A DNA stretch of 36,294 nt from a virus. The notes beneath the pieces were generated by a model. That model was not told the origin of the DNA and searched no databases. It saw nothing but the letters and a program-made list of their open reading frames with translations. Position 1 is the stretch's first letter. Every line of letters starts with the position of its first letter. Shown one piece after another: positions 1,941 to 25,968 of this stretch. The position numbers were made by a program, and so were the translations under genes. The stretch covers positions 1 through 36,294 of the IMG/VR virus record IMGVR_UViG_3300045996_001279; one strand, written 5' to 3'.

Positions 1941-3184
1941 CGCTCCTGGCTGGCGTTTTCCGCAACTCCATCGAGAACCCGGCCGTGCCGCTGACCTCGG
2001 ACTCGCTGCTGACCGTCCTCGGTTCCGGCGAGGCCACGGCCGCGGGCATAGCGGTCTCTGAAAAGACATCCCTCGGGCTGCCCGCCGTGTGGCGGGCGGT
2101 CAACCTGATCGCGGGCACCGTCGCCTCGCTCCCACTTCACGCCTACCGCGCCGATGGGGACACCAAGACGAAGGTGACCACTGGGCAGGCTGCGGCGCTG
2201 CTCGACAACCCGCATCCCGATATGACCCCGTTCGAGTTCTGGGAGACGGTCGTCTCCCACATGCTGCTGTGGGGCAACGCCTATCTGTGGATCGGGCGCA
2301 ACCAGCTCGGCCAGGTGACCGAGTTGTGGCCGATCCACCCGGCGCGGGTGAAGGTCGGGCGCACCTCGGAGATGGGCACGAAGATCTACGACGTGGACGG
2401 CGGCAAGGCCGCGTACACGGATCGGACGATGCTGCACCTGCCGGCGTTCGGGTACGACGGCATCTGCGGCGTGTCCCCGATTCGTGCGGCTCGTCAGGGG
2501 CTGGCGCTGGCGCTGGCGGCCGAGCAGTACGGCGCGACGCTGTTCGGGTCGGGGTCGCTCGCTACGGGCATCCTCCAGACCGAGCAGCGCCTGGACGCAC
2601 AGCAGGCCGACGCGATCCAGAAGCGGTGGGCAGCGAAGCGGTCTGGCCTGGACTCGGCGCACTCGACCATCGTCCTCGACTCGGGTGCGAAGTTCCACCA
2701 GCTCTCCATCCCGCCCGAGGACGCCCAGTTCCTCCAGTCGCGGTCGTTCCAGATCTCCGAGGTCGCACGCATGTTCGGTGTTCCGCCGCACATGCTGATG
2801 GACACCGACAAGTCGACGTCGTGGGGCACCGGGATCGAGCAGCAGTCAATCGGGTTCGTGGTGTTCACGCTGCGCCCGTGGCTGACCCGCATCGAGCAGC
2901 GGGTGACGCGCCTGGTGCGTCCGCAGCCCGTCTACGCGAAGTTCGTCGTCGAGGGTCTCCTGCGTGGGGACTCGGCGCAGCGTGCCGCGTTCTACAAGAC
3001 GATGCGCGAGATCGGCGCGTTCAACGGCAACGAGATCCGCGAGCTCGAGGAGCGCGGCCCGGTCGAGGGCGGCGACATCTACTGGCAGCCGCTGAACTTC
3101 GGAGAACTCGGCGCCGAATCCGACCCCACCCCCACGCCGGCAGAGCCGGAAACCGAACCTACGGAGGTTCCCGCTGATGCGTGA
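1937..3184 (+). CDS. portal protein, HK97 type
   Basis: A 415-aa protein with the typical portal core: VWRAVNLIAGTVASLPLHAY near residue 55, and an ISEVARMFGVPPHML segment about residues 273-287. It should form the dodecameric ring at the capsid vertex through which DNA is packaged and ejected and onto which the connector docks. The C-terminus is Pro/Glu-rich, as is usual. GTG start coupled to the preceding gene; the end overlaps the protease gene by 8 nt. Confidence 0.92.
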   Translation: MTLLAGVFRNSIENPAVPLTSDSLLTVLGSGEATAAGIAVSEKTSLGLPAVWRAVNLIAGTVASLPLHAYRADGDTKTKVTTGQAAALLDNPHPDMTPFEFWETVVSHMLLWGNAYLWIGRNQLGQVTELWPIHPARVKVGRTSEMGTKIYDVDGGKAAYTDRTMLHLPAFGYDGICGVSPIRAARQGLALALAAEQYGATLFGSGSLATGILQTEQRLDAQQADAIQKRWAAKRSGLDSAHSTIVLDSGAKFHQLSIPPEDAQFLQSRSFQISEVARMFGVPPHMLMDTDKSTSWGTGIEQQSIGFVVFTLRPWLTRIEQRVTRLVRPQPVYAKFVVEGLLRGDSAQRAAFYKTMREIGAFNGNEIRELEERGPVEGGDIYWQPLNFGELGAESDPTPTPAEPETEPTEVPADA

Positions 3185-4178: not shown

Positions 4179-5408
4179 ATGCCCACCACGGAACTGCGAG
4201 AGCAGCGCGCGAACGTCTGGTCACAGATGACCGAGATCATGGACCGAGCGCACCAGGAGAAGCGCGACCTCACGGTCGACGAGCAGACCACCTACGACAA
4301 GGCCGAGGCCGACCTCGACAGCCTCTCGGCGCGCATCGAGCGCGAGGAGAAGCACGAGGCCCGCGCGGAGGCGTTCAACCACGTCGACCGCCGCGGCGTC
4401 GTCCCCACGGACGGCCCCGCCCGGGAGTCCGACGAGCCCACCTACGAGGAGTCGTTCAACAACTACCTCAAGGGCGGCATCGGCTCCCTGCGCGCCGACC
4501 AGCGCAAGGTCCTCCAGGACGGTCACTCCGACGCCCTGAAGAACGCCCTGTCGGTCGGCACCAACTCGGCCGGTGGCTACCTCGTCCCGCCCGGGTACCG
4601 CCAGGAGTTCATCGTCCAGATGAAGGACTTCGGCGCGGTACGTGAGGTGGCGCAGGTCATCTCGACCGACTCGGGCAACCCGCTCCAGTGGCCGACGATG
4701 AACGACACCGCCAACGTGGGCCGGCTGCTGGCCGAGAACACGCAGATGACCGAGACCGACGTGGTCGTGGGCACCGCCACCCTGAGCGCCTACGTCTACT
4801 CCTCGGACCTGACGCGGGTCTCGCTCCAGCTCGCCAACGACGCCGCGTTCGACGTGGGCAACCTCGTCCGCACGGCGCACGCGGAGCGCATCGGCCGGAT
4901 CACCAACCAGCACTTCACCACCGGCACCGGCACCGCCCAGCCGCAGGGCATCGTCACGGGCGCGACCAACGGCAAGACCGCCGCTGGCGTGGCCGCGATC
5001 ACCGCCGACGAGATCATCGACCTGACGCACTCCGTGGACCCGGCCTACCGCCGCTCCCCGCGTGCCCAGTTCATGCTCTCCGACACGGCCTTGTCGCTGC
5101 TCCGGAAGCTCAAGGACAGCAACGGGATGTACCTGTGGCAGCCCAACGTGCAGGCCGGCGCCGCCGCGACCCTGTTCGGCTACGGCTACGTCATCAACCA
5201 GGACATGGCGGTGCCGGCGACCGGCGTCAAGTCGGTCCTGTTCGGTGACTTCCAGGCGGGCTACGTGATCCGCGAGGTCACCGACCTCCAGGTCATCACG
5301 TTCACCGAGCGCTACCTCGACTACCTCCAGGTCGGGCACTCGTCCTACCTGCGGGCGGACGGCAAGGTCCAGAACGCCTCGGCGTACAAGGCCCTCACCC
5401 AGGCGTGA
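4179..5408 (+). CDS. major capsid protein, HK97 fold
   Basis: A 409-aa capsid protein. Residues 1-110 are a charged coiled-coil delta domain (ELREQRANVWSQMTEIMDRA and onward) that serves as internal scaffold and is normally removed by the upstream protease. The shell domain begins near SVGTNSAGGYLVPPGYRQEF, the classic start of HK97-type capsid domains. An in-frame ATG at 4146 lies upstream, but the start at 4179 is preferred because AAGGGA lies ten nt before it. Long stem-loops on both sides of the gene suggest its dosage is set separately. Confidence 0.95.
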   Translation: MPTTELREQRANVWSQMTEIMDRAHQEKRDLTVDEQTTYDKAEADLDSLSARIEREEKHEARAEAFNHVDRRGVVPTDGPARESDEPTYEESFNNYLKGGIGSLRADQRKVLQDGHSDALKNALSVGTNSAGGYLVPPGYRQEFIVQMKDFGAVREVAQVISTDSGNPLQWPTMNDTANVGRLLAENTQMTETDVVVGTATLSAYVYSSDLTRVSLQLANDAAFDVGNLVRTAHAERIGRITNQHFTTGTGTAQPQGIVTGATNGKTAAGVAAITADEIIDLTHSVDPAYRRSPRAQFMLSDTALSLLRKLKDSNGMYLWQPNVQAGAAATLFGYGYVINQDMAVPATGVKSVLFGDFQAGYVIREVTDLQVITFTERYLDYLQVGHSSYLRADGKVQNASAYKALTQA

Positions 5409-6435: not shown

Positions 6436-6875
6436 TGGGCTACTCGCCCGCCGTGGCCGTACGCAAGGCCGCTATCGCAGCCCTCGATGCCTTGATCGAC
6501 GACGACGAGGTGCTGGTCAACTACTACTGGAAGCCGGACGCCCGCGACCGGCGCCAGGTGTTCACCCAGCGCAGCCGCGCGGACGTGACTCCGGCCGCGA
6601 TGAAGGCGGGTCGGCTGCACCGCAATGAGGCTGGCCGGTTCGAGCTCGTCGTGCACCTCGAACACGTGGGCGAGGACCAGGAAGCCGCCGACGAGGAAGT
6701 CCTCGACGCCTACGCGGAGATCGTCGAGGAGTATTTCGCGGACACCAAGCGCCCCGACGTGGAGGGCGTCAACTGGTGGCTGATCGCGTCGTGGGAGCTG
6801 GCCGGTGGCCCTTCCGACCGCGGCTCCATATCCCAGCTCATCTACACGATCACCTACGACGCCCGCGTCACCTGA
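6435..6875 (+). CDS. tail terminator or head-tail joining protein (probable)
   Basis: A 146-aa protein located between the connector and the tail tube gene. It has an N-terminal helix (RKAAIAALDALIDDDEVLVN) followed by alternating beta strands and a conserved-looking WWLIASWELAG segment. This helix-sheet order and size fit tail terminator or tail completion proteins that cap the tail tube and join it to the head. Translationally coupled to the connector gene. The exact role (terminator or stopper) cannot be decided from sequence. Confidence 0.6.
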   Translation: MGYSPAVAVRKAAIAALDALIDDDEVLVNYYWKPDARDRRQVFTQRSRADVTPAAMKAGRLHRNEAGRFELVVHLEHVGEDQEAADEEVLDAYAEIVEEYFADTKRPDVEGVNWWLIASWELAGGPSDRGSISQLIYTITYDARVT

Positions 6876-19951: not shown

Positions 19952-20455
19952 TCATGCCCGCTTCTTCGCCGCATTGTCGCGCACCCGGTGGCAATCCCGA
20001 CACCTCGGCGTGATCTTGTCCCGGTCCCGGTGGAACTCGCCGCGCGGCTTGTTCACCCCACAGCCGGTGCAGACCTTGTGCGTGGCAGCCTGCCGGATCG
20101 GCACCACGACACCCTTGCGTGCCTGGCGCCGGTCGTGCTCGGTGAGGCCGGCCCAGATCCCGTACTTGGTGGCCTCAGGGTTGGCGAGTGCGTAGTCGAG
20201 GCACTCCTGCCGCACGGGGCAGCGGGCACACACCTTCTGCGCGTCCCGCGGCGAGTGGCCCTTCTCGGGGAACCACGCCTCCGGGTCGGCCTGCCCACAC
20301 AACCCCTGCTCCTGCCAGTCGAGGCGCTGGTCGAACAGGTCGAACCCGGTCCAATCGGACGGCATCCCACTGTCGGTTCGACTGTCGGTGACCCCCTCGG
20401 GCGACTGTCGGTCTGACTGTAGGCCGACAGTCGGTTCGGTGGTTTCCACGCTCAC
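19952..20455 (-). CDS. WhiB-family regulator with extra C-terminal zinc ribbon
   Basis: A 167-aa protein from GTG 20455, which overlaps the FtsK stop (GTGA). The WhiB core has four Cys (C53, C76, C79, C85; C-x22-C-x2-C-x5-C) that would hold a 4Fe-4S cluster, and the GIWAG turn (99-103). Beyond it, C129, C132, C152 and C155 (VCTGCGVNKPRGEF and RCRDC) form a second, zinc-ribbon-like site not found in ordinary WhiB proteins. ATG 20365 is an alternative start giving 137 aa. It probably binds the host sigma factor and redirects transcription. Confidence 0.85.
   Translation of the reverse strand: MSVETTEPTVGLQSDRQSPEGVTDSRTDSGMPSDWTGFDLFDQRLDWQEQGLCGQADPEAWFPEKGHSPRDAQKVCARCPVRQECLDYALANPEATKYGIWAGLTEHDRRQARKGVVVPIRQAATHKVCTGCGVNKPRGEFHRDRDKITPRCRDCHRVRDNAAKKRA
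20369..20436. repeat. cluster of ACTGTCGGT repeats at the WhiB start
   Basis: Three exact copies of ACTGTCGGT (20369-20377, 20381-20389, 20404-20412), two near copies (20416-20424, 20428-20436) and an inverted ACTGTCGG (20424-20431) forming the palindrome CCGACAGTCGG. If WhiB starts at ATG 20365 this is a leader or operator; if it starts at 20455 it encodes a low-complexity peptide. Confidence 0.6.
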
Positions 20456-22014
20456 ACGCCCCCTGCCGACAGATCTGCGGTCTCCGAGAGCCGCCACGCG
20501 CGGCTGCTCCCGCTCCACCCGCGCGTGAACGCGCGCTGCTGACCGAGCAGTACGCCCAGGTCGCGCTCGGACCCGACCGCCTCCCGCGTCTGCTCGGACA
20601 GGTGGCCGTGGATCTTCGCAGCAGGTGACGGGCCATGCGTCCGCAGGATCGCGGTCACCTCATCCACCAGCCACTCCCCCGCCGCGTTGGGGGAGGGGAG
20701 CGCTACGAGCGTCGGGCGAAACGGACCGCGCAACGCCGCCGCCCGCTTGCACACCTTCCGCCACGCCTCGTCGGTCAGCCGGTCGAGCTCCAGCCCCGCG
20801 ACCGGCCCACCGTCCGTGAACAACGCCTGCCCCCTGCGCTTCGGCAACGCGAGCTGCGGCGTCGTGCCCAGCACCAGCGCCGCGTCCTGCCCGTTGCGGA
20901 GCATCAGCGCGATCCGCTGGGAGAGCAGGTTCCGCGTCCCCGCCGGCAGGTCGTCCGTCGTGGGGCGCTGCGTGGAGACGAGCACATGCACCGACACCGC
21001 GCGGCCCATGCGGACGATGCGGCCCAGCGTCGCGTCGAGCCGGTCGCGGGCGTCCCGGTGAGCGGCGGCGCGCACGTCCTGGAACTCCTCGAGCAGCAGC
21101 AGGACGCCGGGGTGGTCACCGCCTGCCGCGTTGCGCTGGCGTACGAGGTCGAGGACGGTGGTCATCATCGCAAGCGTCTCCGTGACCGCGTTGTCGTCGG
21201 TGCCCGAGACGAACTGCGCGCACATCGGACGGGCTGCGCCGTAGTCGTCGACGGACCCCTTGCCGTCGAGCAGGTAGATCGCGGTGGCCGGGTCGAGCAG
21301 GTAGTGGCCGAGGATGATCCGTGACAGCGACGTCTTGCCCGAGCCGGGCCGACCCGCAACGAGCGTGTTGTGCTCGCTGGTCTCAAGGGTGACCGGCTTG
21401 CCGAGCACGTCGTGGGCTATCTGGATCGGAGTGGACCACTCAACCCGCGAGGCCGACGCCACCACTGCGGGGATCTGCTTACGGTCACGGGGCTTGCTCA
21501 CGTAGATGTTGACCACGTTCGCCGGGTCGCCCTCTACGTGGTAGATGTGCAGGCTGCTCTCAGGCACCTGCAGCTCAGCGGCAATGTCACCGATCTTGCC
21601 CACGGCGGCACGGTGGTTGCGGTGCGGCATCCCGACGACGACCGTTGTCCCCGAGTCGTCGTGCTGGGGCTTCCCGCGATAGGAGAGAGTCGGCAACTTC
21701 TCGCCGTCGCGCTTGAGTACGCCCGCGTCAACCAGCGCCGTAGAGAGGGTGTCGTGGTCCCACCAACCGCGCTTCCTGCCCGGCCTCCACTTCATCGCCG
21801 CGTACACGCCGCCCGCCAGGACGAGCGCGAGCACCATCGACCCCGACCACGCCCACAGCAGCACCGTGAGCAGCACCGCGCACACGCCGCGCCAGTGAGC
21901 CCACAGCCACATCGCCCCCGCCACCGGCAGCGCGACCTTCCATCCCTTGAGGGAGATGGTCGTGTCGGCCAGCCAGTGAGGGGTGAGGGGCGCCTTGCGC
22001 CTGCGCTTGGTCAC
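20452..22014 (-). CDS. FtsK/TraB-like membrane-anchored DNA translocase
   Basis: A 520-aa motor ATPase. Two or three membrane helices lie at residues 27-73. The P-loop domain has Walker A GRPGSGKTS (221-229), Walker B GVLLLLEEFQD (303-313) and the family segment VSTQRPTTDDLPAGT (346-360). The C-terminal 90 residues look like a winged-helix gamma domain (VDEVTAILRTHGPSPAAKIH). It resembles the Tra proteins of Streptomyces plasmids and integrative conjugative elements, which move double-stranded DNA between cells. In a phage it could aid DNA segregation, packaging or transfer. GTG start, coupled to the upstream gene. Confidence 0.88.
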   Translation of the reverse strand: MTKRRRKAPLTPHWLADTTISLKGWKVALPVAGAMWLWAHWRGVCAVLLTVLLWAWSGSMVLALVLAGGVYAAMKWRPGRKRGWWDHDTLSTALVDAGVLKRDGEKLPTLSYRGKPQHDDSGTTVVVGMPHRNHRAAVGKIGDIAAELQVPESSLHIYHVEGDPANVVNIYVSKPRDRKQIPAVVASASRVEWSTPIQIAHDVLGKPVTLETSEHNTLVAGRPGSGKTSLSRIILGHYLLDPATAIYLLDGKGSVDDYGAARPMCAQFVSGTDDNAVTETLAMMTTVLDLVRQRNAAGGDHPGVLLLLEEFQDVRAAAHRDARDRLDATLGRIVRMGRAVSVHVLVSTQRPTTDDLPAGTRNLLSQRIALMLRNGQDAALVLGTTPQLALPKRRGQALFTDGGPVAGLELDRLTDEAWRKVCKRAAALRGPFRPTLVALPSPNAAGEWLVDEVTAILRTHGPSPAAKIHGHLSEQTREAVGSERDLGVLLGQQRAFTRGWSGSSRAWRLSETADLSAGGV

Positions 22015-22310
22015 GGTCGCTCCAACTGTGCCTTGCGGGCGACTGGGTCAGTCAACGGGGCGCCGCGCATGAGCCGGTTCAGCGCGTACCCAGCCCCTTG
22101 TGCCGGGTCATAGCCGCGAATCCCCACGACCAGCCGGATCAACTCGGGCAGCGCATCGTAGGGATGCACGTCCACGGGTGGAAGGTGACCACCTTCGAGC
22201 GCCCCGACGAAGTCCGACGCTTCTTGCAGCGTCAGTTCGGTCATCAGTGCAAGGTCTTTGACCACCATCGTCCATGTGTAGTCCTCGCGGCCCACGTCCC
22301 TGTCACTCAC
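22011..22310 (-). CDS. hypothetical protein upstream of FtsK-like gene
   Basis: A 99-aa protein with GTGA overlap to the translocase and ATGA overlap to the preceding membrane gene. It looks soluble and helical (MVVKDLALMTELTLQEASDF; ALPELIRLVVGIRGYDPAQG). No motif is recognised. The tight coupling suggests it works with the translocase. Confidence 0.75.
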   Translation of the reverse strand: MSDRDVGREDYTWTMVVKDLALMTELTLQEASDFVGALEGGHLPPVDVHPYDALPELIRLVVGIRGYDPAQGAGYALNRLMRGAPLTDPVARKAQLERP

Positions 22311-22510
22311 ATGTGCTCCTTCACGGCGCTACTCGACGACTGCACGAGGTCCACGACCCCGCCGATCACGAACGAGATGGTCCCGATGGCCTTCGCCCTC
22401 ACGTGGCCGGCGTCCTCCGGGGCCACGATGAACACTAGGCCCGTGATGACCGCGAACGTCACGACCACCTTCACCACGAGCGCGACGGCCGAGCTCAACA
22501 GGCCACCCAT
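22307..22510 (-). CDS. small membrane protein (Spd-like position)
   Basis: A 67-aa protein with a hydrophobic helix (SAVALVVKVVVTFAVITGLV) and a second weaker one (IGTISFVIGGVVDLVQS). ATG 22510 is preferred over a longer reading because it overlaps the previous stop (ATGA). Small membrane proteins next to an FtsK-like Tra gene are typical of the spread (Spd) genes of actinomycete conjugative elements; the comparison is by context only. Confidence 0.7.
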   Translation of the reverse strand: MGGLLSSAVALVVKVVVTFAVITGLVFIVAPEDAGHVRAKAIGTISFVIGGVVDLVQSSSSAVKEHM

Positions 22511-22725
22511 CACGCCACCCGGCCGATCTCGTAGGTCAGCACGGACACCAGCCACAGCGGCCCGAGCACGCACAGGGCGGCGCGGATGATGCGGGTTAAA
22601 CGGGTGGTCCCTGGCGCTGGAGCGACCTGCTGCTGCATCCTCGTGGGCGGGGTTGCCCTTGGGACAGCGGTCGCACAGGGACCACCCGGGATCGGGGGGG
22701 TTCGGGTTTCGCTAGAGTCCTGCAT
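22510..22725 (-). CDS. small membrane protein
   Basis: A 71-aa protein with a Pro/Thr/Gln-rich soluble N-terminus and one C-terminal membrane helix (RAALCVLGPLWLVSVLTYEI). AAGGTGAA lies seven nt before the ATG. The stop overlaps the next start. It belongs to the same membrane-translocase gene set. Confidence 0.7.
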   Translation of the reverse strand: MQDSSETRTPPIPGGPCATAVPRATPPTRMQQQVAPAPGTTRLTRIIRAALCVLGPLWLVSVLTYEIGRVA

Positions 22726-22758
22726 GGATTCACCTTCCAGAGTTAGGTGGGTCAAGTC

Positions 22759-22786
22759 CTGCGGCGAGGTTCGCCCCTCGCCGCAG
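22759..22786 (-). terminator. stem-loop within the leftward operon
   Basis: A perfect 11-bp inverted repeat, CTGCGGCGAGG (22759-22769) and CCTCGCCGCAG (22776-22786), with a six-base loop. It lies in the only sizeable gap of the FtsK operon and has no T-run. It may attenuate transcription or protect the upstream mRNA end. Confidence 0.5.
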
Positions 22787-22790
22787 GGCG

Positions 22791-23039
22791 CTAGGTCTGC
22801 TCCCGCCCCATGATCTTGAGGAATCGGGCGCGGGCTGCGGGGTCGAGCTCGCGGATTCGCTGCTCCTGGTCGACGGTGGCGCGCACGGGGTAGTTCTCCA
22901 CCGTGATCGTGTAGCGGTCTCGGCGCTGCACGACGTCTGCGTCCGTGGCCGGGCGCGGCGGCGGGGACGTCTCCTCGCGCTGGATGTTGGCAGATGCCAA
23001 CTGCTCGGCGTCCGCTGCGCTGGTCCACTGGTCGCTCAC
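22791..23039 (-). CDS. hypothetical protein
   Basis: An 82-aa protein starting in a GTGA overlap with the GIY-YIG gene. The N-terminal part is polar; the C-terminal half has a short strand (DRYTITVENYPVRATVD) and a basic helix (PAARARFLKIMGREQT). No family is recognised. Confidence 0.72.
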   Translation of the reverse strand: MSDQWTSAADAEQLASANIQREETSPPPRPATDADVVQRRDRYTITVENYPVRATVDQEQRIRELDPAARARFLKIMGREQT

Positions 23040-23476
23040 GATTCCTCCCGCACGTATCGCTCGAGCGCCTCACGCAGCACGTCGGACAGGTTCTCCTGCC
23101 GCTCTGCGGCCTTCGCCATCGCCGCCTCGTACAGCTTCGCCGGGTAGCGGTGGGAGCGCATGACGAGAGCGGGCTTGTGGTGAGTCGCCTGCTTCCACGT
23201 GGCGACGTTGTACAGCGGGCGCTCAGCCGCGATCATCACTGCCTCGTGCTCAGCGGCAGCGTCGTGGGACGGCCACGTGGTGAACGTCGTGCGCGCGGGG
23301 TCAACCTCCGGCCACCAGTCCTTGTCGAGAGCGTGCTGCGCTAGGCGCATCTTGAGAACGCGGGTCATCCCTGTATAGAGGAGTACCCCTTGGGTGTCGA
23401 ACAGGTGATAGACGACGTGTGGCCGTGCACTGACGCGCCCTATTTCTGCAAGCGCCTCTCGCGTGCTTCCATCCAT
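23036..23476 (-). CDS. GIY-YIG nuclease-like protein with ribbon-helix-helix tail
   Basis: A 146-aa protein. Residues 18-95 fit a GIY-YIG domain: HVVYHLFDTQGVLLYTGMT (GIY read as VYH, YIG as YTG), R44 and H48 in LKMRLAQHAL, E78 and N90 (ERPLYN). Residues 104-144 (LVMRSHRYPAKLYEAAMAKA, then LSDVLREALERYV) match a ribbon-helix-helix DNA-binding unit. The fusion suggests a site-directed nuclease or nuclease-like repressor. Its GTG start lies within the preceding HTH gene (37-nt overlap). Confidence 0.72.
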   Translation of the reverse strand: MDGSTREALAEIGRVSARPHVVYHLFDTQGVLLYTGMTRVLKMRLAQHALDKDWWPEVDPARTTFTTWPSHDAAAEHEAVMIAAERPLYNVATWKQATHHKPALVMRSHRYPAKLYEAAMAKAAERQENLSDVLREALERYVREES

Positions 23477-23637
23477 GCCTTCACCTCCTCGGTCTTCCAG
23501 ACCTTCCCGCCTGCCAGAACTGCGTCCGGTGCTGGGAAGTCCTTGCGGCGGGTGAGCTGGGTGACTCGCTGACGTGAGACCCCGAGCATTTTCGCGATCT
23601 CCTGAGCGCCGACTAGGTGGTGCATGCCAGCTATCAT
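23440..23637 (-). CDS. excisionase-like winged-helix DNA-binding protein
   Basis: A 65-aa protein with a MerR/AlpA-type helix-turn-helix (AQEIAKMLGVSRQRVTQLTR) followed by wing and helix (GGKVWKTEEVKAWMEARERR). It resembles small excisionases (Xis) that bend attachment sites and repress their own promoter. ATG 23637 is chosen because a good promoter ends seven nt before it; ATG 23625 is an alternative. First gene of the FtsK-WhiB operon. Confidence 0.75.
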   Translation of the reverse strand: MIAGMHHLVGAQEIAKMLGVSRQRVTQLTRRKDFPAPDAVLAGGKVWKTEEVKAWMEARERRLQK

Positions 23638-23644
23638 AGGGGTG

Positions 23645-23673
23645 AGCCTAGTTGTCACGTGCCTAGTGGTCAA
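23645..23673 (-). promoter_or_regulatory. promoter of the excisionase-like/FtsK operon
   Basis: On the minus strand, TTGACC (23673-23668) and TAGGCT (23650-23645) are 17 nt apart. The ATG at 23637 begins seven nt after the -10, so the mRNA would be leaderless. Confidence 0.6.
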
Positions 23674-23691
23674 GTACCTAGTTCGGGATCG
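23647..23691. repeat. 15-bp direct repeats over the promoter (operator candidate)
   Basis: CCTAGT occurs at 23647, 23662 and 23677, exactly 15 bp apart. The first two 15-bp units agree at 12 positions (CCTAGTTGTCACGTG and CCTAGTGGTCAAGTA); the third keeps only the start. The -35 lies in unit two and the -10 touches unit one, as expected for an autorepressor site. Confidence 0.6.
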
Positions 23692-23767
23692 CTCGCCTTT
23701 GCCTGCAACGTCGGAGCATGGGTGCAGGGGCTCGGGTTGTGGGCAATGTCGGATTGGAGCGTTCAAA

Positions 23768-24433
23768 TCACGCGACCTGCAACCTCTGGCACAGCGCGCG
23801 CACGGTAGACGCGTGCCACTGAGCCCCGCCCTGCGCGGTCGGCAGGCCCTCCGTGTTCAGTGCCTTGGCAACCGCGCCGTACGACGCGCCCTGGCGACGC
23901 ATCACCCGGACGACAGCCTCGGCGTCAGGCGCCGTAGAGGCAGGGCGGCCGAGCCTGCCGCCCTGAGCGACCACCTCCGCGAGCGCGTCCTTGGTCCGCG
24001 CGCCGATGATCCGCCGCTCCCACTGGGCCAGCGCCATGATGATGTTTGCGACCAGCTCGCCGTTGATCGTGGACGTGTCCACGCCGATGTCCAGCGCCAC
24101 GATGCCCCACCCCTGCTCCTGTGCGGTCGCCATGAGGCCGGCGAAGTCGAGCAGCGAGCGGGAGAGCCGGTCCAACTTGGCGACGATGAGCACCTGGGCG
24201 TGCCCCGCCTCGAGCTCGAGGAGCGCCCTCGCCAGTTCGGGCCGCCGCCTGGTCGTCTTGCCTGAGGCCACGTCCACGTAGCACTCAGCCAGATCCCACC
24301 CCTGCTTTGCCACCTCGGCGTCGATGACCTCCCGTTGCGCGGCCAGCCCATAGCCGCGCTCTCCCTGCCCATCGGTGGAGACCCGGCAGTAGCCGACTGC
24401 GGTAGTTGTTGTACGGATTTCCTGGTCGCTCAT
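23768..24433 (-). CDS. serine recombinase (resolvase/invertase family)
   Basis: A 221-aa recombinase. The catalytic domain has GYCRVSTDGQ (Ser19 as nucleophile, R17) and VAKLDRLSRS (R89, R92), then a long E-helix (ELVANIIMALAQWERRIIGA). The C-terminal part (RPASTAPDAEAVVRVMRRQG, ASYGAVAKALNTEG) is a helix-turn-helix of resolvase type. The size is that of a resolvase or invertase, not of the large phage serine integrases. It stands beside a tyrosine integrase, so its job may be dimer resolution or a second recombination reaction. Confidence 0.9.
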   Translation of the reverse strand: MSDQEIRTTTTAVGYCRVSTDGQGERGYGLAAQREVIDAEVAKQGWDLAECYVDVASGKTTRRRPELARALLELEAGHAQVLIVAKLDRLSRSLLDFAGLMATAQEQGWGIVALDIGVDTSTINGELVANIIMALAQWERRIIGARTKDALAEVVAQGGRLGRPASTAPDAEAVVRVMRRQGASYGAVAKALNTEGLPTAQGGAQWHASTVRALCQRLQVA

Positions 24434-24496: not shown

Positions 24497-25273
24497 CTAA
24501 CCAGTGAGACTGCGGATCGCGTTCAGCTTGTCCGCCTCATCCACGCCGAGGTAGCGGACGGTCGTCGCCATGTCCGCGTGACGCATCAACGCCTGGACGG
24601 TTCGGATGTTCGCGCCGTTGCGCAGGAGCTCGGTCCCGAACAGGTGCCGGTTGCGGTGGCTCGAGCCGAGCCGGGCAAAGTGGCGAGAGACCCGCATCGT
24701 GACCGCGTGTGGCGTCACGTGGCCCGATGCGGACCTCTCGGAGGGGAACCAGAACCCCTGGCGCGGGTAGGTGCCCGCCAGATCCCACAGTGCCGGATGG
24801 GTCGGCAGCACCTGCCCCTGCGCCCCCTTCCCGAAAACGTAGAGCCAGTCAGGGTCGATGTCCTCGCCTCTGAACTTCGCGATCTCGTGGGCGCGCAGGC
24901 CGGCGAACCTGCCGAGCAACAGGTAGGCGCGCAGGTCACCCTCGGCGTGCAGTAGGACACGGGTGGCGTCGTCCCGAGTCAGCGGTCGAGGCCGAGGCTT
25001 GGGGGTGGGTGGGCGCCGTACGCCGCTCATGGGGGAGGCGTCGAGCTGGCCGGACTCGACCAGCCACCGATACATCGCCACGGCGTGGTCGTAGTAGGTG
25101 CGCTTGGTGTGCCCCGCGTAGGCCGTGAGGAAGTCGGCTATCCGTTCCGGTGGCTGGTCGAGGTCGCCCCAGTCTGCAAGCCTTGCGCGGGCGAACGCCT
25201 CGCGCTGGGCGATGGTGCGAGCGCTAAAACCCTTGCGGGTCATGTAGGTCCGATATTCCCCGAGGTTCGTCAT
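24497..25273 (-). CDS. int: tyrosine integrase
   Basis: A 258-aa tyrosine recombinase with an N-terminal SAM-like domain (TYMTRKGFSARTIAQREAFA) and a catalytic domain carrying R127 (GLRAHEIAKF), K149 (FGKGAQGQVLP), H206 and R209 (SSHRNRH), H232 (LMRHADMATT) and the nucleophile Y241 (VRYLG). It should integrate the phage at a host attB. It is short for a phage integrase and seems to lack a separate arm-binding domain. Only 37 nt separate it from the upstream repressor gene, so the two are probably co-transcribed. Confidence 0.9.
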   Translation of the reverse strand: MTNLGEYRTYMTRKGFSARTIAQREAFARARLADWGDLDQPPERIADFLTAYAGHTKRTYYDHAVAMYRWLVESGQLDASPMSGVRRPPTPKPRPRPLTRDDATRVLLHAEGDLRAYLLLGRFAGLRAHEIAKFRGEDIDPDWLYVFGKGAQGQVLPTHPALWDLAGTYPRQGFWFPSERSASGHVTPHAVTMRVSRHFARLGSSHRNRHLFGTELLRNGANIRTVQALMRHADMATTVRYLGVDEADKLNAIRSLTG

Positions 25274-25310
25274 GATGCGGGAAACGTCCGAAAACGCCGG
25301 AAGTCACGGT

Positions 25311-25616
25311 CTAGGCTGCGACGGGGAGCCGATACGACCTCACTAGGGTCCTGGGTGGACCGTCGTCAGGCGGCGTCGCCTCCCCGAACAGCACGCTCGG
25401 TGAAACCCCGAAGTGATGGGCCAGGACGCCGATCTCGTCGGCGTCGAACGGGGTGATTCCCCGCAGGCGCTTGCTGATCCCCGTCTGAGACACGCCTAGG
25501 ACCCTAGTGAGATCCATCTGCGTGACGTTGTAACGCCCCATGAGTGCCCGAACCTCTGCGGCGACGCGTTCGGAGGTTCGTGGCCTCCCGCTCCCCGGCA
25601 ATGATGTAACGCTCAT
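25311..25616 (-). CDS. immunity repressor, HTH type, ssrA-like C-terminus
   Basis: A 101-aa protein with a lambda-type helix-turn-helix (MDLTRVLGVSQTGISKRLRG) and the following helices (PFDADEIGVLAHHFGVSPSV). It is probably the lysogeny repressor. Its C-terminus ends LPVAA, which resembles the degradation signal of ssrA tags. It is followed at once by int and faces the Cro-like gene. It shares the R-L-x-G-x-TPFD core with the Cro-like protein, which suggests a common origin. ATG start with no Shine-Dalgarno; probably leaderless. Confidence 0.82.
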   Translation of the reverse strand: MSVTSLPGSGRPRTSERVAAEVRALMGRYNVTQMDLTRVLGVSQTGISKRLRGITPFDADEIGVLAHHFGVSPSVLFGEATPPDDGPPRTLVRSYRLPVAA

Positions 25617-25623
25617 GGCGGGG

Positions 25624-25653
25624 AACCTACCCTGTGGATAAGCCTGTGCACAA
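25624..25653 (-). promoter_or_regulatory. repressor promoter (leaderless)
   Basis: On the minus strand, TTGTGC (25653-25648) and TAGGTT (25629-25624) are 18 nt apart. The repressor ATG starts seven nt after the -10. The -35 match is weak, so activation may be involved. Confidence 0.45.
25633..25653. promoter_or_regulatory. two DnaA-box-like sites in the switch region
   Basis: TGTGGATAA (25633-25641) is a perfect match to the DnaA box TTATCCACA read on the other strand. TGTGCACAA (25645-25653) differs from the actinobacterial form TTGTCCACA by one base. They are 12 bp apart and overlap the repressor promoter. Confidence 0.6.
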
Positions 25654-25695
25654 CCCTAGAGAATAAAGAACACGCGTGAAACTTTGCCCTAGTGC

Positions 25696-25731
25696 TTGAC
25701 GCTATATGTCCTCAGGCTATAGAACTGAGTC
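25696..25731 (+). promoter_or_regulatory. early rightward promoter (Cro operon)
   Basis: TTGACG (25696-25701) and TATAGA (25718-25723) are 16 nt apart. The GTG start at 25732 lies eight nt after the -10, giving a leaderless mRNA. GCTATA is repeated at 25701 and 25716 (15 bp apart), and CCCTAGTG (25687-25694) adjoins the -35; both are operator candidates. Confidence 0.7.
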
Positions 25732-25968
25732 GTGAGCACTACCACCCCCTCAGAGCGGATCGGCAGCAACGTACGCGCCGAGATGGCCCGCCGACGTGTT
25801 TCCCAGACCACCCTCGGTGCGCACATGGGCCTCAAGCAGGCATCTGTCAGCGCCCGCCTGACCGGCCGTACGCCCTTCGACATCAACGAGCTGCACGCGG
25901 TCGCTGACTTCCTCGACGTGCCGCTGGCCGTGCTTCTCAAGGATGGCGTTGAGGCGGCGGCGTCATGA
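25732..25968 (+). CDS. Cro-like HTH regulator
   Basis: A 78-aa protein with a lambda-type helix-turn-helix (SQTTLGAHMGLKQASVSARL) and the TGRTPFDINELHAVADFLDV helices. It is divergent from the repressor and heads the early operon, the usual place of Cro. GTG start at the predicted transcription start. It would repress the repressor promoter and favour lytic growth. Confidence 0.8.
   Translation: MSTTTPSERIGSNVRAEMARRRVSQTTLGAHMGLKQASVSARLTGRTPFDINELHAVADFLDVPLAVLLKDGVEAAAS

What the first reader, a model, noticed from the sequence alone, without database searches (positions are those of the whole stretch)
24497..25968. Repressor-integrase-Cro cassette resembling integration-dependent immunity
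The order is repressor (leftward), integrase directly downstream, and a Cro-like gene divergent. The repressor ends in LPVAA, similar to an ssrA degradation tag. In mycobacteriophages such as BPs and Brujita, attP lies inside the 3' end of the repressor gene. The virion form of the repressor carries the tag and is unstable, and integration removes the tag and establishes immunity. The same logic would work here if attP lies near 25311-25370. The tag and order are seen; the mechanism is inferred.
Basis: partly seen in the sequence, partly recalled or inferred. Interest (0 to 1): 0.75.

Follow-up and report, generated by a model that had tools for sequence, protein, structure and literature searches.

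The report
Phage repressor activated by chromosomal integration
This soil-type bacterial virus appears to carry its chromosomal docking site inside the last codons of its own repressor gene, so that inserting into the host chromosome cuts off a predicted destruction tag and switches the virus into dormancy; this is a known kind of switch, seen here in a new lineage (Nocardioides) with an unusual docking site in a DNA-ligase gene.

Summary
In detail: leftward Rep (25311-25616, 101 aa, ends ...SYRLPVAA) and Int (24497-25273), with a divergent Cro-like HTH gene (25732-25968). (1) Two Nocardioides prophages with 55-56% identical integrases were mapped at both ends. In each, Rep runs to the attachment core and stops at once on a host-supplied TAG/TAA, while the int side keeps the severed in-frame remnant YPAALALAA* or YPPLLTLAA*. 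The host tmRNA tag ends ALAA. (2) The window's own site was found. Window 25333-25349 matches, with at most 1 mismatch, the 3' end of a LigC-type ATP-dependent DNA ligase gene in four Nocardioides species (best 25/27 over 25333-25359); a reversed-pattern control gave none. Integration there would end Rep as ...RTLVRS*, removing YRLPVAA. It would also restore the ligase reading frame from phage DNA lying antisense to rep. (3) Six named actinophages with related integrases, Charlie among them, have the same order and -AA repressors. Not shown: a lysogen of this phage, degradation of the LPVAA form, immunity. It is a new member of integration-dependent immunity, with a protein-gene attB instead of the usual tRNA.

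The parts
24497..25273 (-). Small tyrosine integrase (258 aa; PF00589), with no room for a lambda-type arm-binding domain; ends ...IRSLTG, so no ssrA-like tail of its own
   Evidence: 51-56% identical to L002, L018 and L019
25311..25616 (-). Repressor (101 aa, HTH_31/HTH_3); virion form ends ...RTLVRSYRLPVAA
   Evidence: 58% identical to the L003 repressor over residues 15-90
25333..25359 (.). Proposed attP core TACGACCTCACTAGGGT(CCTGGGTGGA) inside rep; 17 bp (25333-25349) to 27 bp shared with the 3' end of Nocardioides ligC
25311..25332 (-). 3' end of rep severed by integration (with the last two core bases it encodes YRLPVAA*), predicted ssrA-like degradation tail; stays beside int in a lysogen
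   Evidence: equivalent severed tails seen in L018 and L019
25333..25416 (+). Phage-supplied replacement C-terminus for the host DNA ligase (YDLTRVLGGPSSGGVASPNSTLGETPK*), antisense to rep
   Evidence: translation in the ligase frame
25617..25731 (.). Divergent rep/cro control region; by eye a rightward sigma-70-like promoter TTGACG (25696) - 16 bp - TATAGA (25718)
   Evidence: inspection only
25732..25968 (+). Cro-like HTH gene, divergent from rep

Best explanation
The window is the unintegrated (virion-form) genome of a temperate siphophage of Nocardioides or a close relative, with an integration-dependent immunity cassette. In the virion form Rep is made with the tail YRLPVAA, inferred to send it to ClpXP-type proteolysis as an ssrA mimic, so lytic growth is the default. 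When Int recombines attP (25333-25349, up to about 25359) with attB in the last codons of the host ligC-type ligase gene, the tail-coding 3' end stays next to int. Rep then reads into host DNA and meets TAG at once, giving a 94-aa Rep ending ...RTLVRS, inferred to be stable and to repress the early promoter. The same crossover gives the ligase a replacement C-terminus from the phage strand opposite rep. Shown from sequence: gene order, the attP/attB match, predicted stop and ligase frame, and the real junctions in two relatives. Inferred: degradation, activity difference, immunity, and that ligC is the site actually used.
For: Gene order and C-terminus. Integrase relatives include Charlie, Purky, Hedwig, Clown, TillyBobJoe and Dogfish with the same cro/rep/int order, and all six repressors end in -AA; cluster N (Charlie) and cluster P phages are published users of this system (PMC4557955). 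Two Nocardioides prophages (L018, L019) have both ends mapped against empty sites of other Nocardioides: Rep side ...GAVTGP* and ...PATHP*, int side remnants YPAALALAA* and YPPLLTLAA* in the same frame; tmRNA tag of both genomes ANTNRSSFALAA. Window core found in 220 Nocardioides genomes: 5 hits, 0 in the reversed control, 4 of them at one locus, the end of an ATP-dependent DNA ligase (NCBIfam PRK08224, 519 bits against cut-off 296); L141 25/27 identical. Predicted prophage Rep ...LVRS* and open ligase frame in all four. Same codon phase as the two prophages (CGTA then host G or A gives TAG/TAA). A relative with 59% identical portal (G717) has a repressor ending NAVAA with a partial tRNA-Lys sequence inside its 3' end.
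Against: No lysogen of this phage was found and its host is unknown. The attB rests on a 17-27 bp match in related species, and the exact 17-mer was not seen in any of the 220 genomes (all five hits have 1 mismatch). The tail is VAA, not LAA. Two relatives with tRNA sequence in rep have no -AA end (L003 ...DDAKE, L025 ...APAGD). Nucleotide similarity between the window's rep-int junction and L018 or L019 is not significant by itself (147/2000 and 1355/2000 shuffles as good).
Confidence: 0.88

Rival explanations
1. attP does lie in rep and integration trims Rep, but LPVAA is not a degradation signal; truncation is only a side effect of where the core sits, and lysogeny is decided by ordinary Rep/Cro competition.
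For: -AA ends are not rare in this genome (3/34 other ORFs). The L003 and L025 repressors carry tRNA sequence near their 3' ends but no -AA end. The tail is VAA rather than the LAA of the tmRNA tag.
Against: 6/6 repressors of named phages with related Int end in -AA. The severed tails of L018 and L019 both end LAA although the residues before it have largely diverged. G717's repressor independently ends NAVAA.
Confidence: 0.08
2. The cassette integrates at a different place: the ligase match is chance or a shared peptide motif, and attP is elsewhere in rep or in the rep-int gap, so the host site is unknown.
For: The same peptide DLTRVLG occurs in the HTH of this very Rep as a 14-bp inverted repeat (25498-25511), so the motif can arise in a repressor. 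No occupied ligase site was seen.
Against: Four of five genus-wide hits fall at one orthologous gene end with no hits for the reversed control. 25/27 identity in L141. The match starts exactly where both mapped prophages cross over (CGTA), yields an instant TAG for Rep in all four, and keeps the ligase frame open. A scan of 2.9 million viral contigs with the 17-mer gave only two unrelated hits.
Confidence: 0.1
3. The small serine recombinase at 23768-24433 is the real integrase and the tyrosine recombinase does something else.
For: It lies directly downstream of int with an HTH_17 (excisionase-like) gene next to it. TillyBobJoe and Clown also carry both kinds.
Against: It is only 221 aa; its best phage match (52.7%) is annotated as a DNA invertase, whereas large serine integrases are usually far longer (own knowledge). 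The window Int's closest relatives sit at mapped prophage ends. In the Gordonia phages Wizard and Twister6 the extra serine gene is reported as defective (PMC5559632).
Confidence: 0.04

Closest known systems
Integration-dependent immunity of mycobacteriophages BPs, Brujita and Charlie (Broussard et al. 2013, cited in PMC4557955; clusters G, I, N, P)
   Same: cro/rep/int order, attP inside rep, -AA tail removed by integration, short tyrosine integrase of the same family (35% identical to Charlie Int)
   Different: Different repressor sequence; the tail removed is only 7 residues (33 in BPs); proposed attB in a protein gene; Int lacks the -AA tail. In BPs the repressor tag was tested experimentally; here nothing is tested
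Gordonia phages with predicted integration-dependent immunity (PMC5559632: Hedwig, Wizard and others)
   Same: Same order, repressors with ssrA-like ends, related integrases (34-36% identity)
   Different: 10 of their 13 predicted attB sites overlap tRNA genes; Hedwig uses tRNA-Thr. Here the proposed site is the 3' end of a DNA-ligase gene
Bifidobacterium prophages Bb423phi2 and 689b-1 (PMC6109161) and M. abscessus MabB/MabN prophages (PMC9934374)
   Same: Repressor truncated at one prophage end and a remnant coding an ssrA-like tag left at the other, as in L018 and L019
   Different: Different hosts and tRNA sites; the Nocardioides prophages use the region just 5' of a TPP-enzyme (acetolactate synthase-type) gene

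Membership tests
Integration-dependent phage immunity (features as listed in PMC9934374 and PMC4557955) | Leftward rep and int with a divergent cro-like gene | tested here: met
Integration-dependent phage immunity (features as listed in PMC9934374 and PMC4557955) | Core of attP lies inside the coding sequence of rep, near its 3' end | tested here: met
   Window 25333-25349(-25359) matches host attB candidates; mapped directly in relatives L018 and L019. No lysogen of the window phage itself
Integration-dependent phage immunity (features as listed in PMC9934374 and PMC4557955) | Prophage repressor is shorter because bacterial sequence at the junction supplies a stop | tested here: met
   Predicted for the window with four attB sites (...LVRS*, 94 aa); observed in two relatives (...GAVTGP*...PATHP*)
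Integration-dependent phage immunity (features as listed in PMC9934374 and PMC4557955) | Virion-form repressor ends in an ssrA-like tag with two C-terminal alanines | tested here: met
   LPVAA in the window; host-genus tmRNA tag ends FALAA. Sequence only
Integration-dependent phage immunity (features as listed in PMC9934374 and PMC4557955) | Virion form is degraded, prophage form is stable and confers immunity | not testable with these tools
   needs protein decay and superinfection assays
Integration-dependent phage immunity (features as listed in PMC9934374 and PMC4557955) | Integrase also carries a C-terminal degradation tag (seen in BPs; not required) | tested here: not met
   Window Int ends RSLTG; not universal, since Hedwig ends LVA and Charlie AVS
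Integration-dependent phage immunity (features as listed in PMC9934374 and PMC4557955) | Short arm-less tyrosine integrase | tested here: met
   258 aa, catalytic domain 101-245, aligned with the Charlie and Purky integrases; arm-lessness judged from length only

The most novel reading that the evidence does not exclude
One crossover re-ends two overlapping genes at once. The roughly 80 bp at 25333-25416 are read on one strand as the C-terminus of the phage repressor and on the other as a replacement C-terminus for the host's ligC-type DNA ligase. Integration thus stabilises the repressor with a stop lying antisense within ligase while phage DNA antisense to rep repairs the ligase. This would be integration-dependent immunity with a protein-coding attB and two-strand coding at attP, which I did not find described in the papers read.
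Probability: 0.6. Interest if true: 0.55.

Novelty: new member of a known kind. Interest (0 to 1): 0.48.

Why it matters
It extends a switch described in Mycobacterium, Gordonia and Bifidobacterium phages to Nocardioides and to at least two further repressor types, and gives two natural lysogens with the severed tags still readable. It shows that the switch does not need a tRNA attachment site. Because the core must satisfy the integrase, the repressor's C-terminus and the host gene's C-terminus on the opposite strand, it is a compact test case for how such overlapping constraints evolve. It also names a concrete host site (ligC 3' end) and an exact predicted lysogen junction that can be checked by PCR.

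Tried and rejected
tRNA-type attP: no tRNA in the window and no Rfam match at 25200-25750; rejected. TPP-enzyme site used by L018 and L019: the window core does not match it; rejected. Significance of the window-L018/L019 junction alignment alone: not significant, so not used as proof. BLAST of the window's rep 3' end against 298 Propionibacteriales genomes: background of GC-rich chance hits. Class-wide pattern search: one hit, G108 upstream of a cyanophycinase-like gene, not repeated elsewhere; treated as chance. 17-mer in viral contigs: two unrelated genes. IMG/VR relative L002 starts exactly at the int start codon, as a provirus cut at that edge would, but has no flank to map. Operator idea from the clustered CACTAGGG octamer: only marginally above simulation, left as unexplained. 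Phage-wide host inference from the capsid was uninformative.

Full report
WHAT IS THERE. The window is a 36.3-kb virus record with a large terminase, portal, head protease and capsid near its left end, tail genes and an endolysin. Leftward genes at 25311-25616 (Rep, HTH) and 24497-25273 (tyrosine integrase) are separated by 37 bp; a divergent HTH gene lies at 25732-25968. Rep ends ...GPPRTLVRSYRLPVAA. rep and int are joined in the record, so if attP lies in rep this is the unintegrated form. The -AA end by itself is not striking in this genome (3 of 34 other gene-like ORFs).

RELATIVES WITH THE SAME ORDER. tblastn of Int against named phages gave 401 records, mostly phages of Mycobacterium and Gordonia. 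Six were opened (Charlie, Hedwig, TillyBobJoe, Dogfish, Purky, Clown). All have the cro-rep-int arrangement, though Hedwig and TillyBobJoe have one small gene between rep and int. Their integrases are 34-37% identical to the window's. All six repressors end in -AA, against 2 of 71 neighbouring genes. Charlie's cluster (N) is listed among the users of integration-dependent immunity (PMC4557955; that Charlie is cluster N is own knowledge).

TWO INTEGRATED RELATIVES, BOTH ENDS MAPPED. The one scan of bacterial genomes found two Nocardioides contigs with integrases 55-56% identical to the window's (L018 and L019). In both, int starts about 60-90 bp from the start of a TPP enzyme (acetolactate synthase-type, NCBIfam PRK05858). 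The same region in other Nocardioides without the element reads ...GGTTACTCACCCGTAG.... Aligning empty-site sequence to the two genomes located the far ends, giving elements of about 40 and 49 kb. At the far end a small HTH repressor (Pfam HTH_31, just below its cut-off; not recognisably related to the window's Rep by search) runs into the core and stops at once on host sequence...GAVTGP* (GGCCCGTAG) and ...PATHP* (CACCCGTAAG). At the int end the same reading frame continues from the core as YPAALALAA* and YPPLLTLAA*. Joining the frames gives virion repressors ending ALALAA and LLTLAA. The tmRNA tag of both genomes is ANTNRSSFALAA. These are severed ssrA-like tails, the signature of integration-dependent immunity as defined in PMC9934374.

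THE WINDOW'S OWN SITE. Reading the window in the phase of those prophages predicts a crossover at ...AGG TCG TA|T CGG..., inside rep. The 17-mer TACGACCTCACTAGGGT (+ 25333-25349) was searched with at most one mismatch in all 220 held Nocardioides genomes. There were five hits and none for the reversed pattern. Four of the five (L138-L141) are at one place, the last codons of an ATP-dependent DNA ligase gene (Pfam PF01068 and PF04679; NCBIfam PRK08224, 519 bits). In L141 identity extends to 25 of 27 bases. Three consequences follow without further assumption. Reading Rep through the core into the host gives TCG TAG in all four, a 94-aa Rep ending RTLVRS. The ligase frame continues through phage DNA to a stop after 27 codons (YDLTRVLGGPSSGGVASPNSTLGETPK). 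The phage 3' end left beside int encodes RLPVAA*. The fifth hit (L129) lies upstream of an unrelated gene and is probably chance.

OTHER RELATIVES. G717, a viral contig with a 59% identical portal, has a similar repressor ending NAVAA with a partial tRNA-Lys sequence inside its 3' end (Rfam 25.5 bits, just under the gathering score). L003 has a 58% identical repressor over residues 15-90 with what I read by eye as a tRNA-Lys 3' half inside rep, but it ends DDAKE. L025 likewise appears to carry tRNA-derived sequence in rep and ends APAGD. So attP in rep may be more general in this group than the -AA end. Whether the L003 and L025 tails are unstable, or those phages are different, is open.

MECHANISM AND CONFIDENCE. 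Shown: order, core position by attB match, predicted junctions, real junctions in two relatives. Inferred: degradation of the VAA form, stability and repression by the 94-aa form, use of ligC as the site. I put 0.88 on integration-dependent immunity with attP in rep, and about 0.6 on the ligC site with two-strand coding being real and used.

NOVELTY. The switch is known (PMC4557955; Gordonia PMC5559632; M. abscessus PMC9934374; Bifidobacterium PMC6109161). A full-text search for the exact phrase returned 19 papers, and a search combining it with Nocardioides listed no paper that mentions Nocardioides. Most attB sites in the papers read are tRNA genes; a protein-gene attB with antisense overlap was not seen there. 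It is therefore a new member of a known kind, with a distinctive attachment site.

Noticed in passing
window 25339-25352 and 25498-25511: A 14-bp inverted repeat: the attP core sequence CTCACTAGGGTCCT recurs inverted in the HTH codons of rep (peptide DLTRVLG in both). CACTAGGG occurs only three times in 36 kb, at 25341, 25502 and 25687, the last beside the likely rightward promoter. Operator, second Int site or chance is undecided.
   Followed up: partly
window 20452-24433: Leftward block beside the immunity cassette with an FtsK/SpoIIIE-domain protein (520 aa, no match in 50,697 phage records at E<=1e-5), a GIY-YIG-like protein just under cut-off, an HTH_17 protein and a small serine recombinase 52.7% identical to a DNA invertase of Arthrobacter phage 1191A; FtsK-type genes are more typical of actinobacterial conjugative elements than of phages.
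   Followed up: partly
L003 4953-5336 and L025 about 4850-5360: Repressors with tRNA-derived sequence near the 3' end that do not end in -AA (DDAKE, APAGD): possible variants of the switch without an ssrA-like tail.
   Followed up: no
L128 (IMG/VR 3300043594_000015) about 2023-2078, minus strand: The attP-like stretch in rep resembles the 5' half, not the usual 3' half, of a tRNA-Lys gene in the sense orientation of rep; the repressor ends NAVAA.
   Followed up: partly
L018 about 6760-6771, L019 about 6760-6771: The integrases of both Nocardioides prophages end in LVA, which resembles the ssrA variant tag LVA; the window Int ends LTG.
   Followed up: no
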